From contig QBYF01000001.1 of NCBI GenBank assembly GCA_003282965.1, forward strand, positions 165,236-229,235: DNA of 64,000 nucleotides. The letters are read 5' to 3'. Within the stretch, counting starts at the first letter, position 1. Each line of letters begins with the position of its first letter. Below are positions 15,007 to 64,000 of the stretch, piece by piece. Origin of the DNA: Pelagibacteraceae bacterium AG-325-E13. GTDB lineage: Bacteria; Pseudomonadota; Alphaproteobacteria; Pelagibacterales; Pelagibacteraceae. The translations under genes and the position numbers were made by a program. Below the pieces are notes generated by a model. The model saw only the letters and a program-made list of their open reading frames with translations. It made no database searches and was not told the DNA's origin.

Positions 15007-15638
<632 letters not shown>

Positions 15639-15642
<4 letters not shown>

Positions 15643-16053: not shown

Positions 16054-16230
16054 ATGAAAAAAATAATGCAAGGTATAGGATCTTTACTTATAGTATTTGC
16101 TATAGCTGACTTTGGTTTATCATACATGGGATATAATTTAACTCCATTTTTACCAGATGGTATTTCTAGATTCAGTCCAATAATTATAGGATTGATAGGT
16201 GGAGCTTTAGTAAAGGTTGATTGGAAATGA
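16054..16230 (+). CDS. 58-aa membrane protein resembling the N-terminus of the AapM-like permease in this window
   Basis: Manual translation: MKKIMQGIGSLLIVFAIADFGLSYMGYNLTPFLPDGISRFSPIIIGLIGGALVKVDWK; not in the supplied ORF track (below size cut-off). Confidence 0.75.
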   Translation: MKKIMQGIGSLLIVFAIADFGLSYMGYNLTPFLPDGISRFSPIIIGLIGGALVKVDWK

Positions 16231-17152
16231 AATTTTGAAAAAAATATTTTCAATAATATTTTTTTTATTACTTTTTACTCACTTACAAGCTTTAGAAAAA
16301 AAAATTTTAAATAACGATGAGTGGGGCAAGAAGGTTAATACTCTTAATTGGAAAAATCTCGATAATAAAGAACATAATGTTTCTGTAAAAAAAGCGAACG
16401 CTAAAATTCTTATTTTAGGCGATGAAATATACTTAGATAATTTTAATGATATAAATCAATATAGTTGGTGGGCTTTCGGTTACGCAGCAGAAAAAAATGT
16501 AGTAATGCATATAAGAGGCAATGGTTATGATGTGTATCTTGATTATATTGATGATGGTTATGTCAAGTTAGATGATTGGAAAAGTGTTGATCCAAAAAAT
16601 TTGTTATCTCAATTAAGAGAAATTGCGAGATCTAACGTAACTTATCTCAAAGATAAAAACTTAGATTACGTAAACAATATTGATTGGATTTTTAAGCCTA
16701 CTTTAAATGAAACAAATAAATCAGTTAGTTATTCCTACAAAGTAAATTGGAATAGCGGTCAACAGTCTATGGAGTCTAAGAATTTAATTTTAGGTAAAAA
16801 AGGTTATTTAGAAAGTGCATTCGTAGTAAGCTATCAAAAAGATATGGATTTAAAATATCAGTCAGATTTTTCAAAAGATTTTGTCAATGGTGTTATTTTT
16901 GAGGATGGCTTTAGACATTCTGATTATAAGCCTGGAGACAAAGTTGCAGCAGTTGGAATAGGAAGTTTAGTTGCGGGTTCACTAGGTGTTAAAGCTTTAG
17001 CTAAAACAGGAGTTCTTGTTAAACTAGCTAAATTTTGGTGGATATTATTAGCTCCATTAGCTTTTTTAGGAAAATTCTTAAGTGGAAAAGATAATTCAAA
17101 TAATGGATCTAGCGTAAGTAAGGCATCTTCAAGAAAAAGAAGAAAGAAATAA
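16217..17152 (+). CDS. DUF2167-like membrane-anchored protein
   Basis: Signal peptide, WWAFGYAAEKNVVMHIRGNGYDVYLDYIDDGYVKLDDWKSVDPKNLL; C-terminal GDKVAAVGIGSLVAGSLGVKALAKTG...TM. The true start may be the TTG at 16235. Confidence 0.7.
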   Translation: MIGNEILKKIFSIIFFLLLFTHLQALEKKILNNDEWGKKVNTLNWKNLDNKEHNVSVKKANAKILILGDEIYLDNFNDINQYSWWAFGYAAEKNVVMHIRGNGYDVYLDYIDDGYVKLDDWKSVDPKNLLSQLREIARSNVTYLKDKNLDYVNNIDWIFKPTLNETNKSVSYSYKVNWNSGQQSMESKNLILGKKGYLESAFVVSYQKDMDLKYQSDFSKDFVNGVIFEDGFRHSDYKPGDKVAAVGIGSLVAGSLGVKALAKTGVLVKLAKFWWILLAPLAFLGKFLSGKDNSNNGSSVSKASSRKRRKK

Positions 17153-17157
17153 ATAAA

Positions 17158-17946
17158 ATGTATTTTGCATATCTTCTGGCGGCAATTTTACCAGCCGTAA
17201 TGTTAGTATTTTATGCTTATAAACAAGATCAATTTCCAGAACCACCCAGAATAGTTTTTAAAACATTTTTATTTGGATGCGCAACAGTTCTAGCAATAGA
17301 TTTAGTTATCCCAGTTTTAGATAACTATAACAAAGAACATTTTAGTGGCGAAACTTATCATTTTTTTGAAAATTTTATTCGAGCAGCCTTTGTTGAGGAA
17401 TTTTTTAAAGCATGTGTAATAATTTTTTATTGTACTCGTAAAACAGCTTTTGACGAGCCTATGGATGGAATAATTTATGGAATTGCAGCGTCATTAGGTT
17501 TTGCTGCATATGAAAATATTGACTACGTTTTATATTTTGAAAAAGATCCTTCATTTGACATTGCACTAATTAGAGCTTTTACTGCAATACCAATGCATGC
17601 CCTATGTGGAATAATCATGGGATTTTTGATTTCCCAAAGTATATTTGAAAAAAAACATAATTATTTAAATTTATTTCTAGCTTTATTTATACCAGTAGGA
17701 ATACATGGCTTATATAATTATAGCTTTTCAAGTTCTTTAGTAAGCTACCAAATTGCTTATTTTTTATTACTAGTATTTTCTATAAGAGCTTATCTTATAT
17801 TCAAAAACCTAAAGTTAAGGCAAAAACAAAGTATTATATTTAATCAAAGATACTATAATATAACTTTAGCCAGTTTTATAAATATCTCAACTAATACATT
17901 AGTAATATTTTTGATCTTTAATTACTTGGTAAATTTAGTAACTTGA
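17158..17946 (+). CDS. PrsW-like intramembrane metalloprotease family protein
   Basis: FVEEFFKACVIIFY, DEPMDGIIYGIAASLGFAAYENIDY, AIPMHALCGIIMGF, GIHGLYNYSF. Confidence 0.88.
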   Translation: MYFAYLLAAILPAVMLVFYAYKQDQFPEPPRIVFKTFLFGCATVLAIDLVIPVLDNYNKEHFSGETYHFFENFIRAAFVEEFFKACVIIFYCTRKTAFDEPMDGIIYGIAASLGFAAYENIDYVLYFEKDPSFDIALIRAFTAIPMHALCGIIMGFLISQSIFEKKHNYLNLFLALFIPVGIHGLYNYSFSSSLVSYQIAYFLLLVFSIRAYLIFKNLKLRQKQSIIFNQRYYNITLASFINISTNTLVIFLIFNYLVNLVT

Positions 17947-17950
17947 CAAC

Positions 17951-18838
17951 ATGAAACTTTTAAAATTTTCAATGTTGATGAATTATTTTGCTATTGCAAA
18001 AAACTCTAAGCGCGCAATTTTTATAATTAATTTAGGTATTTTTTTGTCAATATTTGCCTTTTCAGCAGCAACAATATCAATTTTTATAGAAAATAAAGTA
18101 AGTCGACTTGAGTTTGAACATATTGAAAATTCGAGATTTAAAAATGAAATGCAAGACACTACAGAATTTATCATATTATATAAAAATAAATTAAGACAAG
18201 CAATTAATAGTGAAGAGACTCACGAGCAATATATTGAATTTTTAAGACTTAATAATTTTGGTAAAGCTATAACTTCACCAAATGATTTACAGGCATATTC
18301 AATATATGATTTTGTACGTGACAAAGATTTTATTTTAGAATTTGCTTTGTTTTTAAAAGAGGAAATTGATTATGAAACTTTCACAGAAGAAGATGAGAAA
18401 AAAATTAAATTATTAATAATCAAATTAGAAAAAACATTCAAAGCAATTGAAAAACTAGACGCAAAGGTATTAAAGAAAATTGTTTATGATAGATCATATC
18501 AGCATATCGGTGACGAAATTATTAAATCACTCAAAAGTGAGAGTAGATATAAATTTTTAAAAGATCAGGGAATATACGAAAAAGAATATAATTTATTAAT
18601 AAAATTAGTTGATGACTTGGAAGAATTATTTAATTTTTTCTTAACTTACTCTAATTCACTCATCATTTTAACTGATGAAAATCTAAAAGCAATTAATGAG
18701 GAGATAATAATTCTCTCAAGTAAAGAGAAAAATATTATATTAGCTGCTTTTTTTCTTCAATTATTAATATTTATTATAATTCAGTTTTTTGAAATTTCAT
18801 CTTTAAAACTTCATTTGAATAAGAGGAAAAAATTATGA
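17951..18838 (+). CDS. Membrane protein with N- and C-terminal TM flanking a helical/coiled-coil domain, unknown
   Basis: Hydropathy of translation; no recognised catalytic motif. Confidence 0.7.
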   Translation: MKLLKFSMLMNYFAIAKNSKRAIFIINLGIFLSIFAFSAATISIFIENKVSRLEFEHIENSRFKNEMQDTTEFIILYKNKLRQAINSEETHEQYIEFLRLNNFGKAITSPNDLQAYSIYDFVRDKDFILEFALFLKEEIDYETFTEEDEKKIKLLIIKLEKTFKAIEKLDAKVLKKIVYDRSYQHIGDEIIKSLKSESRYKFLKDQGIYEKEYNLLIKLVDDLEELFNFFLTYSNSLIILTDENLKAINEEIIILSSKEKNIILAAFFLQLLIFIIIQFFEISSLKLHLNKRKKL

Positions 18839-19728
18839 GGCGAGGTAAAATAAATAAAACTTCTTTTATTCTAATTTTTTTTGTAGCATTTTTTACAATT
18901 CTTTCTTATGGATTTGATCAGTTAGTTATAAGAAGTGAGGATAAAATTAGGAATTTAAAAATAGAATACCAAAATATTGATAATAGTTTTACTAAATTAC
19001 AATCAATTATTAGCACTTTAGATGAAATTTCATTTGCGTCAGATTTAAATTTTTCTCATCTTATTTTGAGACGAAACTTATTAATTAAATCATATTTACT
19101 CTCAAGAATAGAATTAGGGGATAGTCTTAAATTTTTTAATAGAAAAAATGAAAAAGTAAACACAGAAGATTTGGGGCGCATGATGTTAAAAGAATTAATA
19201 AAAGTGGCTGATATGCAATATGAAATGAGACTTCAATATCAAGAATTTTATATTACTCACGAGAAACAATTAAAGAAAATTAATAATGAAAAATTTTCAT
19301 TATCAGATTTATTTGAGAATGATCTAGATCCTTTTATAGATAAAAGAGGTCAATTTTTTAATCAAAACTTAATTAAGTATACAAAACTTTTTGGTTATAA
19401 TTATCACTGGAAAGATAGTTCTTATGAGGAATTAGTTGAGTATAGAAAAAAAGCATTAGAAAATTATACAGAATATGAATGGTTTGATGTTTATAGATAT
19501 AAAATGATGTTATTAAAAGAAATTAAAGAAGATACAATAGAACTAGAAAATTTTACAGAGTCTATGGACTCAAAAACTGAAGATTTAGAGAAAAAATTGA
19601 TTAAAAAATTTGATCAGTTAAAAACTTCAAATGTAAATAAAAACTTCTATATTTTGTTAAGCATAATATCTCAAATATTTTCATTATTGTTTTTGCTTTT
19701 TTTATTCAGATCTTTTTTAACAAAATAA
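18835..19728 (+). CDS. Membrane protein with N- and C-terminal TM flanking a helical/coiled-coil domain, unknown
   Basis: Same architecture and 4-nt overlap with the upstream gene. Confidence 0.7.
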   Translation: MRRGKINKTSFILIFFVAFFTILSYGFDQLVIRSEDKIRNLKIEYQNIDNSFTKLQSIISTLDEISFASDLNFSHLILRRNLLIKSYLLSRIELGDSLKFFNRKNEKVNTEDLGRMMLKELIKVADMQYEMRLQYQEFYITHEKQLKKINNEKFSLSDLFENDLDPFIDKRGQFFNQNLIKYTKLFGYNYHWKDSSYEELVEYRKKALENYTEYEWFDVYRYKMMLLKEIKEDTIELENFTESMDSKTEDLEKKLIKKFDQLKTSNVNKNFYILLSIISQIFSLLFLLFLFRSFLTK

Positions 19729-20015: not shown

Positions 20016-21542
20016 ATGGGTCGAAAATATAATTATTTAACAAAGAGCAAAGTTGCAAGCGGTCTTCAATGTCACAAAAAACTATGGTTCGATGTTCATG
20101 AACCTTTGAAGAAAGAAAAAGCTGTTTTCAAGGGCGGTAATCGGTTTGGCAATCAAGTAATCAAAAACTACTCTAAAAAAAAATTTAATATTTTAGATTT
20201 GACTGGAGATTTTATAAAACCGGTTGAAAAAACAACTCAAGCTATTAATTCAAATAAAGTTAATATTATTTTTGAAGCTGCTTTTGAATTTTCGAATACT
20301 CAAGTTAGAACAGACGTTTTAATAAAACAAAAAGAAGGCTGGACATTACTTGAAGCAAAATCATCCACCAAATTGAAACCTGAGCATATAGATGACATTT
20401 CTATTCAATCCTATGTCGTAAGAGAAAGCCTAAATAAATTGGGTCAAAAACTAAAAAAAATTAAATTAATACACGTAAATGCAAAATTTATTTTAAAACA
20501 AACAGGAGATTATGAAGGGTTAATTAATGACGAGAATGATCTTACAGAGAGATTAAATGAAAATGAAATTCCTAATAATATTGAAGAACTATTACCATTA
20601 ACAAATAAAGATTCTGTCTGCCCTAAAATTTCTGTCGGCAGTCATTGTAATAAACCTTATTCTTGTGATTATTTTGAAAGGTGTGACACAGCTTCTAATC
20701 TAAAACAAATTACTCCATTTACAATATTACCTTATATAGGAAAGTCAAAAGATCTAATAGATTATATGGCTGCCAAAAAAACAAGCGACTTACAAAAAGT
20801 TCCATCAAGTTTTTTTAAAGATCGAAAAGACTATGCTCCAGGTTATCACCAAATAATTCAAACGGCCCATAAGAAAAATCAACCCTGGATTAATCCTAAC
20901 TTAAAAAATGTATTAAAAGAATTTAAATTCCCAATGTATTTTATGGACTTCGAAACGATAGGCCAAGTAGTTCCAATAATTAGGGGTACAACACCATACT
21001 ATCCTTTACCTTTTCAATGGTCAGTTCATAAATGGCCAACAAAAGATAAGCCAGTAGATAATGGAAAGTCTTTTTTAAAATTTAATGACCAAGATATTGA
21101 AAGAAAGTTTATTGAAACTCTTATCAAAGCTGCTGGTGACAAAGGAACTATATTTGCACACAATGCTAAAGGAACAGAGATCAAAATTTTAGAAAAACTA
21201 AAAGTGAAAGATAATTGTAAAGACCTTATTTCTCAAATAGATAACATAATTGAAAGAGTCGAGGATAGCGCTACTATTGCAAAACATAATTTTTATTCTC
21301 CGCTTATGAATGGCGATTGGGGAATTAAATCGATTGTTAAAGCAATACCAGGTTGTAAAATTAATTATGAAGAAGAAGGTAATATTTCTGGTGGAACCGA
21401 TGCACAGTTGGCTTGGTTTATAAATACAGATCCTAATGAAACAAAGGATAGAAAAGAGAAACAAAAGAAACTATTATTAGAATATTGTTCGAAAGATACC
21501 TTAGCAATCTATTATCTCATAAAATATTTAATAGAATTATAA
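20016..21542 (+). CDS. DUF2779 family protein: Cas4/RecB-like nuclease domain plus DEDD-type exonuclease-like domain
   Basis: SGLQCHKKLWFDV, RTDVLIKQKEGWTLLEAKSS, Cys cluster CPKISVGSHCNKPYSCDYFERC, then FMDFETIG, HNAKGTE, YCSKD. Confidence 0.85.
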   Translation: MGRKYNYLTKSKVASGLQCHKKLWFDVHEPLKKEKAVFKGGNRFGNQVIKNYSKKKFNILDLTGDFIKPVEKTTQAINSNKVNIIFEAAFEFSNTQVRTDVLIKQKEGWTLLEAKSSTKLKPEHIDDISIQSYVVRESLNKLGQKLKKIKLIHVNAKFILKQTGDYEGLINDENDLTERLNENEIPNNIEELLPLTNKDSVCPKISVGSHCNKPYSCDYFERCDTASNLKQITPFTILPYIGKSKDLIDYMAAKKTSDLQKVPSSFFKDRKDYAPGYHQIIQTAHKKNQPWINPNLKNVLKEFKFPMYFMDFETIGQVVPIIRGTTPYYPLPFQWSVHKWPTKDKPVDNGKSFLKFNDQDIERKFIETLIKAAGDKGTIFAHNAKGTEIKILEKLKVKDNCKDLISQIDNIIERVEDSATIAKHNFYSPLMNGDWGIKSIVKAIPGCKINYEEEGNISGGTDAQLAWFINTDPNETKDRKEKQKKLLLEYCSKDTLAIYYLIKYLIEL

Positions 21543-62465: not shown

Positions 62466-63644
62466 ATGAATTTTAAAAACTTTAAATTTGATGTGAGCAA
62501 TAAGAACAAGGATTTAATTCCGCAAGTTCTTACCGTCTTATTTATAGTTTTAGTAATAATTTATTTTACCATTAATGCCCAGAACAACATGGGAAACAGA
62601 GGAATCTCATTTGGTTTTGGATTCCTATCTCAAGAATCTTCTTTTGATATTGCTTTTTCATTAATTGATTATGATGGTTCTTATTCATACGCAAGAGCAT
62701 TTTTAGTAGGTCTTTTAAATACAATTTTAGTTTCAGTTATAGGAATTTTTTTCGCAACAATTTTAGGAGTAACCGTTGGTATATCAAGGTTATCTCAAAA
62801 TTATCTAATTTCAAAAGCTGCAGAATGGTATGTAGAAATTTTTAGAAATATACCCTTAATACTCCAAATTTTTTTTTGGTACTTTGCTGCGTTAAGAGCA
62901 TTACCACTTACAATAGATTCAATAAATTTTTACGATATTAGTTTTTTAAATGTCAAAGGTTGGTATGTTCCTAGATTTATATGGACAAATTTTTCATTGT
63001 TTTTCAACTCGATTATTGCTGCGGTCATCTTAATATTTTTTCTTTCTAAATACGCAAGAAAACAAAGGGATGAATTTGGAAAACAGATTCCAATATTCTA
63101 TATGTCACTTGGAATTTTGTTTGGTTTACCTCTTTTAACATTTTTAATTGGTGGAGTGAGTTTATCTTTTCAAATACCAGAATTAACTCAATTATCTAAA
63201 ACTATTTATGTTTATCAGGGGGGAGTCACTATTATCCCAGAATTAATTTCTTTAGCATTAGCATTATCTATGTATACAGCCACATTTATTGCTGAAAATG
63301 TAAGAGCAGGAATATTGGGGGTTAATAAAGGTCAAAAAGAAGCAGCCGCTTCAATTGGTTTAACAAAAGGACAAATTTTAAAACTTGTTGTAATGCCTCA
63401 AGCATTAAGAATAATAATCCCACCAACTACTAACCAATACTTGAATTTAACGAAAAATTCATCTTTAGCAGCAGCTATAGCCTATCCAGATATTGTTTTA
63501 GTTTTTGCTGGTACAGCTTTAATGCAAACTGGACGAGCAATTGAAATTATTTCAATTACTATGCTTACGTACTTATCATTAAGCTTATCAATCTCAGTAT
63601 TTATGAATTGGTATAACAAAAAAATGGCGATTAAGGAAAAATAA
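62466..63644 (+). CDS. aapQ: General L-amino-acid ABC transporter permease (AapQ-like)
   Basis: EWYVEIFRNIPLILQIFFWYFA; EAAASIGLTKGQILKLVVMPQALRIIIPPTTNQYLNLTKNSSLA. Confidence 0.95.
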   Translation: MNFKNFKFDVSNKNKDLIPQVLTVLFIVLVIIYFTINAQNNMGNRGISFGFGFLSQESSFDIAFSLIDYDGSYSYARAFLVGLLNTILVSVIGIFFATILGVTVGISRLSQNYLISKAAEWYVEIFRNIPLILQIFFWYFAALRALPLTIDSINFYDISFLNVKGWYVPRFIWTNFSLFFNSIIAAVILIFFLSKYARKQRDEFGKQIPIFYMSLGILFGLPLLTFLIGGVSLSFQIPELTQLSKTIYVYQGGVTIIPELISLALALSMYTATFIAENVRAGILGVNKGQKEAAASIGLTKGQILKLVVMPQALRIIIPPTTNQYLNLTKNSSLAAAIAYPDIVLVFAGTALMQTGRAIEIISITMLTYLSLSLSISVFMNWYNKKMAIKEK

Positions 63645-64000
63645 TGAAATTAAATCTAGTCAAACCAAATAAGGAAAATCTAAATACTTTTGTTGCCATA
63701 GGTAGCGCTCTTATTTTAGTGGGTTTTTTTGATTTTTTAGCTAATACTTTTCTAGATTTAAATTTTACTGGATTTTTACCAGGTGGAATTAGTTTTCTAA
63801 CTCCTATTATCTTCGGTGTTATAGGACTTTATTTTATTAGAATTGAATTTAGTGGAAATAGATTGCTTGATAAAATAAATACTAACTTTAATTCAAGTAA
63901 TTTTAATGCTGTTTTAAGTTTATTAGTAATTTTTGCCCTAATCAAATATATTCCTTCTATTTTAAATTGGTTTATTTTTGATGCTGACTTTGCAGGTAAC
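63644..64000 (+). CDS. aapM: General L-amino-acid ABC transporter permease (AapM-like), N-terminal part, cut by window end
   Basis: TAATG-coupled to aapQ; MKLNLVKPNKENLNTFVAIGSALILVGFFDFLANTFLDLNFTGFLPGGISFLTPIIFGVIGLYFIRIEF... Confidence 0.75.
   Translation, partial: MKLNLVKPNKENLNTFVAIGSALILVGFFDFLANTFLDLNFTGFLPGGISFLTPIIFGVIGLYFIRIEFSGNRLLDKINTNFNSSNFNAVLSLLVIFALIKYIPSILNWFIFDADFAGN

What the first reader, a model, noticed from the sequence alone, without database searches (positions are those of the whole stretch)
16054..16230. Unlisted 58-aa membrane protein is a stand-alone version of the N-terminal segment of the AapM-like permease
Aligning IGSLLIVFAIADFGLSYMGYNLTPFLPDGISRFSPIIIGLIG (this ORF) with IGSALILVGFFDFLANTFLDLNFTGFLPGGISFLTPIIFGVIG (start of the permease at 63644) shows a shared N.T.FLP.GIS...PII.G.IG block, 14 of 21 identical by eye, plus IGS.LI and DF. 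The small ORF lies outside the ORF track and beside the DUF2167/PrsW cluster. It may be a mobile membrane module or a partner that mimics or regulates the permease.
Basis: seen in the sequence. Interest (0 to 1): 0.65.

Follow-up and report, generated by a model that had tools for sequence, protein, structure and literature searches.

The report
Small membrane hairpin shared with permease
A 58-amino-acid membrane protein in a SAR11 ocean bacterium is a genuine, conserved relative of a two-helix piece that SAR11 bacteria added to the front of their amino-acid importer AapM; as a separate gene it sits in a tight operon with a DUF2167 protein and a membrane protease, which suggests it is a small building block that helps membrane proteins assemble or be regulated.

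Summary
The ORF at 16054-16230 is real, under purifying selection (dN/dS about 0.1), and homologous to the first ~60 residues of the AapM-like permease (own-genome tblastn E 1.9e-6; profile-profile E 9.6e-12). AlphaFold2 gives a confident two-helix hairpin (pLDDT 93). No Pfam, NCBIfam or PHROGs family covers it.

The segment is not ordinary AapM sequence. It is an extra two-helix module carried only by AapM of one Pelagibacteraceae clade, gained once (support 100/99). Stand-alone copies form a separate, equally well-supported group. They occur in at least five genomes in which no AapM orthologue was found, so a role as obligatory permease mimic or regulator is not favoured.

The best functional clue is linkage. 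DUF2167 occurs in 10 of 397 Pelagibacterales genomes, and 8 of the 10 genes have a stand-alone module beside them, usually with a PrsW protease, in two genera. In the window the module opens a five-gene unit with gaps of at most 5 bp.

Close relatives elsewhere are mobile, lying between direct repeats of the tmRNA 3' end. The window copy shows no such repeat.

Most likely role: a helix-hairpin adaptor, in trans for DUF2167/PrsW and in cis for AapM. The biochemical function is inferred.

The parts
16054..16230 (+). Stand-alone two-TM module protein, 58 aa; first gene of a five-gene unit
   Evidence: dN/dS about 0.1; AF2 pLDDT 92.7, helices 2-24, 35-38, 41-54
16235..17152 (+). DUF2167 protein (PF09935), TTG start 4 bp after the module stop; leader-like N-terminus and hydrophobic C-terminal region by eye
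   Evidence: E 5.1e-29, above cut-off
17158..17946 (+). PrsW-family intramembrane protease (PF13367); carries EExxK, a YEN motif and a conserved His by eye
   Evidence: E 1.2e-35; below the NCBIfam PrsW equivalog cut-off
17951..18838 (+). Predicted TM-helical domain-TM protein (by eye), context cluster C30; no family above cut-off
18835..19728 (+). Predicted TM-helical domain-TM protein (by eye), context cluster C31; overlaps the previous gene by 4 bp
62466..63644 (+). AapQ-like amino-acid ABC permease, immediately upstream of aapM
   Evidence: TIGR01726 above cut-off
63644..64000 (+). AapM-like permease, first 119 codons; cut off by the contig end
63695..63850 (+). The fused copy of the module at the permease N-terminus
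   Evidence: E 1.9e-6, 41% identity, query residues 7-57

Best explanation
The ORF encodes a small inner-membrane helical hairpin. It belongs to an undescribed family found here only in Pelagibacteraceae, with about 50 core residues G-x9-DF-x8/9-N-x-T-x-F-x8/9-P-x3-G-x2-G. The family exists as (i) stand-alone proteins of roughly 54-93 aa and (ii) an N-terminal extension fused once to the amino-acid ABC permease AapM. I infer that the hairpin is an adaptor or assembly subunit: it inserts N-in/C-in and packs against partner membrane helices through its intramembrane Asp and its glycine-rich second helix. In trans it would serve the DUF2167-PrsW membrane unit encoded by the next genes; in cis it would serve the AapM core, whose topology is preserved because two helices are added. 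SHOWN: homology of the two forms, conservation, single origin on AapM, linkage to DUF2167/PrsW, hairpin prediction. INFERRED: co-transcription, topology, physical contact, adaptor role.
For: Homology. Purifying selection: pooled pS 0.485 vs pN 0.100 over nine 58-aa members; the same trend in two longer groups. Confident hairpin model. Extra module on AapM: complete module-bearing AapM is about 417-481 aa from the first Met, standard AapM of sister genera about 347-350 aa, starting where the module ends; module-bearing AapM is one side of one branch, 100/99; no hits in about 380 Alphaproteobacteria outside the family. Linkage: 8 of 10 Pelagibacterales DUF2167 genes have a stand-alone module beside them (seven same strand, one divergent), most have PrsW beside them, in two genera and more than one arrangement. 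PrsW is in 8 of 56 same-genus genomes and six of these eight carry a stand-alone module within 2.7 kb (hypergeometric 2e-5). In the window five genes are spaced by 5 bp or less.
Against: No direct evidence of contact or activity. Two of the ten DUF2167 loci lack the module (L160, L165), and DUF2167 outside the family has no module next to it in the 29 loci checked, so it is not essential to DUF2167. The longer stand-alone group has other neighbours, and G013 carries both groups within 5 kb, so part of the PrsW association may reflect a shared insertion hotspot. AF2 of the permease N-terminus is weak (pLDDT 69). Foldseek against PDB finds nothing with E <= 0.001.
Confidence: 0.45

Rival explanations
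1. The small protein is a substrate or regulator of PrsW (regulated intramembrane proteolysis): PrsW cleaves it to switch the DUF2167 unit on or off.
For: PrsW is next to the module in most DUF2167 loci and in the window operon. The Bacillus PrsW is known to cleave a small membrane anti-sigma factor (established knowledge).
Against: The module has no soluble regulatory domain; ssrA-cassette copies and some loci lack an adjacent PrsW; the module fused to AapM has no adjacent PrsW in the window.
Confidence: 0.2
2. It is a partner, mimic or regulator of AapM, exchanging with or binding the fused module.
For: Clear sequence homology; both forms are encoded in the window genome.
Against: Five genomes with the stand-alone gene have no AapM orthologue; four show only generic permease matches of 28-33% identity, one none (genomes 58-87% complete). 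Stand-alone and fused modules are separate clades. Linkage is to DUF2167/PrsW.
Confidence: 0.1
3. A small membrane protein whose own activity (stress response, ion leak, phage exclusion) is unrelated to any partner, carried as cargo in hypervariable regions.
For: Patchy occurrence, ssrA-bounded cassettes with other small secreted or membrane genes, variable-region neighbours.
Against: Frequent adjacency to DUF2167 for the 58-aa type outside the cassettes, and stable fusion to AapM, suggest a protein-partner role.
Confidence: 0.2
4. Chance similarity between two hydrophobic hairpins.
For: Both are short and hydrophobic.
Against: Shuffles keeping the hydrophobic pattern do not reach the score; polar and Gly/Pro positions coincide; profile E 9.6e-12.
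Confidence: 0.02

Closest known systems
AapM / YhdY, general L-amino-acid ABC permease (TIGR01726 domain)
   Same: The window permease and its relatives are AapM-type in the permease core and lie in aapJ-aapQ-aapM order; the SAR11 yhd operon is named in PMC3090418.
   Different: AapM of this clade carries an extra N-terminal two-helix module of about 70 residues that standard AapM lacks. The 58-aa protein has only the module and no permease core.
DUF2167 (PF09935) and PrsW (PF13367) gene neighbourhoods
   Same: The genes beside the small ORF belong to these families by Pfam.
   Different: Outside this family the small module is not found next to DUF2167. No paper describing the pair was found in the held library.
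ssrA (tmRNA)-specific tandem genomic islands of Dehalococcoides (PMC2764846)
   Same: Repeated copies of an ssrA fragment downstream of ssrA, bounding inserted genes.
   Different: In SAR11 the units seen are often 0.2-2 kb with one or a few genes, and no integrase was noticed in the arrays read. Concerns relatives of the module, not the window copy.

Membership tests
AapM-like amino-acid ABC permease | Permease core (TIGR01726 / BPD-type) in the protein | tested here: not met
   The 58-aa ORF has no core and no family match. It shares the extra module only, so it is not an AapM. The window permease itself is truncated; its relative L020 has the core.
DUF2167-linked gene unit of Pelagibacteraceae (defined here) | Stand-alone module gene adjacent to a DUF2167 gene | tested here: met
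   4 bp gap in the window; 8 of 10 Pelagibacterales loci
Any Pfam, NCBIfam or PHROGs family | Match above the curated cut-off | tested here: not met
   58-aa protein: zero families in all three; 26 members against Pfam: best E 0.022, scattered over unrelated families
PrsW substrate | Cleaved by PrsW | not testable with these tools
   Needs co-expression or proteomics
ssrA-cassette cargo | Gene bounded on both sides by tmRNA 3'-end repeats | tested here: not met
   No repeat within 4 mismatches in the window. Met in relatives L067-L069; L070 has the upstream repeat.

The most novel reading that the evidence does not exclude
The module is a portable intramembrane adaptor that lets a DUF2167-PrsW protease unit recognise membrane partners. 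Because AapM carries the same module in cis, the unit could also bind and control the amino-acid transporter, linking membrane proteolysis to nutrient uptake in SAR11.
Probability: 0.07. Interest if true: 0.75.

Novelty: new variant of a known kind. Interest (0 to 1): 0.5.

Why it matters
SAR11 are among the most abundant cells in the ocean, and amino-acid uptake is central to them. A lineage-specific two-helix module fused to their AapM, and kept separately as a small protein beside a conserved DUF2167-PrsW pair, gives a defined and testable unit for two families with little known function, and a case of a small protein overlooked because of its length. The mobile copies at ssrA also give a handle on how streamlined genomes exchange genes.

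Tried and rejected
Chance TM similarity: rejected. Pseudogene or AapM fragment: rejected by selection and the clade split; the apparent internal TGA in G007 is upstream of an intact 56-aa ORF. Viral origin: no relative in IMG/VR by the patterns tried and no PHROG. Known fold or PDB relative: none significant. Module beyond Pelagibacteraceae: no convincing hit (one weak f2 hit, E 0.009). Module next to DUF2167 in other Pseudomonadota: none. First genome-contig query with the joint alignment failed for lack of a conserved stretch; repeated with small proteins only. Weak hits in L157/L158 lie in core-gene regions, were not recovered by the profile and were dropped. AF2 of the permease N-terminus was too weak to compare folds.

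Full report
OBSERVATION. The similarity is real: tblastn in the own genome returns only these two places, the second at E 1.9e-6 and 41% identity over 51 residues. The Smith-Waterman score of 95 exceeds every one of 80,000 shuffles, including those keeping the hydrophobic pattern, best 74. Profiles of ten small proteins and twelve permease starts align at E 9.6e-12, and invariant positions shared by both groups fall on the same columns.

FAMILY. Among 150 relatives the module is found at the start of permease-sized frames in many same-genus genomes and as stand-alone frames in about fifteen. A search of named genomes returned 36 stand-alone loci, all Pelagibacteraceae. In the order 269 of 397 genomes match, almost all in four genera of one family; in the class, nothing outside the family. 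The 58-aa group and a longer group with a lysine-rich N-terminal tail are under purifying selection where tested. No database family covers them.

THE PERMEASE SIDE. Module-bearing AapM forms one side of one branch with 100/99 support, so the module was added once. The module tree separates fused from stand-alone copies, 100/100, with a long branch between them; whether AapM acquired a pre-existing small gene, or the small gene split off, is not resolved. Five genomes of the same genus without the module match lack an AapM orthologue altogether, and five genomes with the stand-alone gene show generic permeases at best, though they are incomplete.

THE SMALL-PROTEIN SIDE. In the window the ORF is followed after 4 bp by a DUF2167 gene, then after 5 bp by PrsW, after 4 bp by a TM-helical-TM protein, and by a second such protein overlapping by 4 bp. 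DUF2167 is rare in the order, 10 of 397 genomes, yet 8 of the 10 genes have a stand-alone module directly beside them, in two genera, seven on the same strand and one divergent; PrsW is beside most. In genus g13 PrsW can be divergently oriented while the module stays upstream of DUF2167. PrsW occurs in 8 of 56 same-genus genomes and six of these have a stand-alone module within 2.7 kb. This is confounded in part by a shared variable region, since the longer group has different neighbours but often also PrsW. DUF2167 in other Pseudomonadota has no module next to it.

STRUCTURE AND MECHANISM. AlphaFold2 gives a hairpin with mean pLDDT 92.7: helix 2-24, a loop with a short helix 35-38, helix 41-54. 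Basic residues lie at both ends and the loop carries D35 and R39, which I read as N-in/C-in; the permease module is similar, and adding two helices would keep the AapM core's topology. From this I infer an adaptor hairpin working in cis on AapM and in trans with DUF2167/PrsW. Direct contact has not been shown.

MOBILITY. In L067-L069 the module gene lies between copies of the 3' end of the permuted tmRNA gene, in the same register each time and among different neighbours; L070 has the repeat upstream. Such repeats occur in 71 of 150 relatives, all in this genus; by my count of the table 48 of 91 genus genomes have two or more. The window's genome has four of its own on another contig. A distant relative of the module sits in such a unit in G015. 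Dehalococcoides gives a precedent for repeated ssrA fragments bounding inserted genes (PMC2764846). A SAR11 study reports hypervariable regions without attC sites and does not mention tmRNA in its main text (PMC2217521). The window's copy has no such repeat.

VERDICT. A real, conserved, undescribed small membrane-protein family with a fused and a stand-alone form.

Noticed in passing
L067, L068, L069, L070, L145-L152 (e.g. L145:1235-4135; G000:C12): Arrays of small genes bounded by repeats of the alpha-tmRNA 3' end (GGCACCTGGCAACAGAACGCC), in this genus only among the relatives searched; no integrase noticed in the arrays read.
   Followed up: partly
L151:2054-2346 (G035:C2); repeat pairs of the same spacing at G057:C18, G052:C7, G023:C4, G006:C6: A 272-bp repeat-bounded unit with a 71-aa ORF; in L151 no tmRNA gene was found nearby, so it may lie at a site other than ssrA.
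   Followed up: no
L156:3028-3240: Distant module-like protein (E 0.0036) inside an ssrA-bounded unit of about 270 bp in G015.
   Followed up: partly
window 15007-15642: Membrane protein with long Pro-Glu repeats, TonB/TolA-like in composition only, upstream of the module gene here and in several relatives.
   Followed up: no
window 20016-21542: 508-aa ORF that looks to me like a DUF2779-type predicted nuclease; from memory, not tested.
   Followed up: no
L071-L095 (context clusters C3, C4): The longer stand-alone group lies near a MORN-repeat protein with a caspase-like C-terminus and a trypsin-like protease, as read by eye; family searches not run on them.
   Followed up: no
L096, L097, L099 (context cluster C5): Protein next to PrsW that looks like a PDZ domain plus a pentameric-channel-like region, by eye only.
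   Followed up: no
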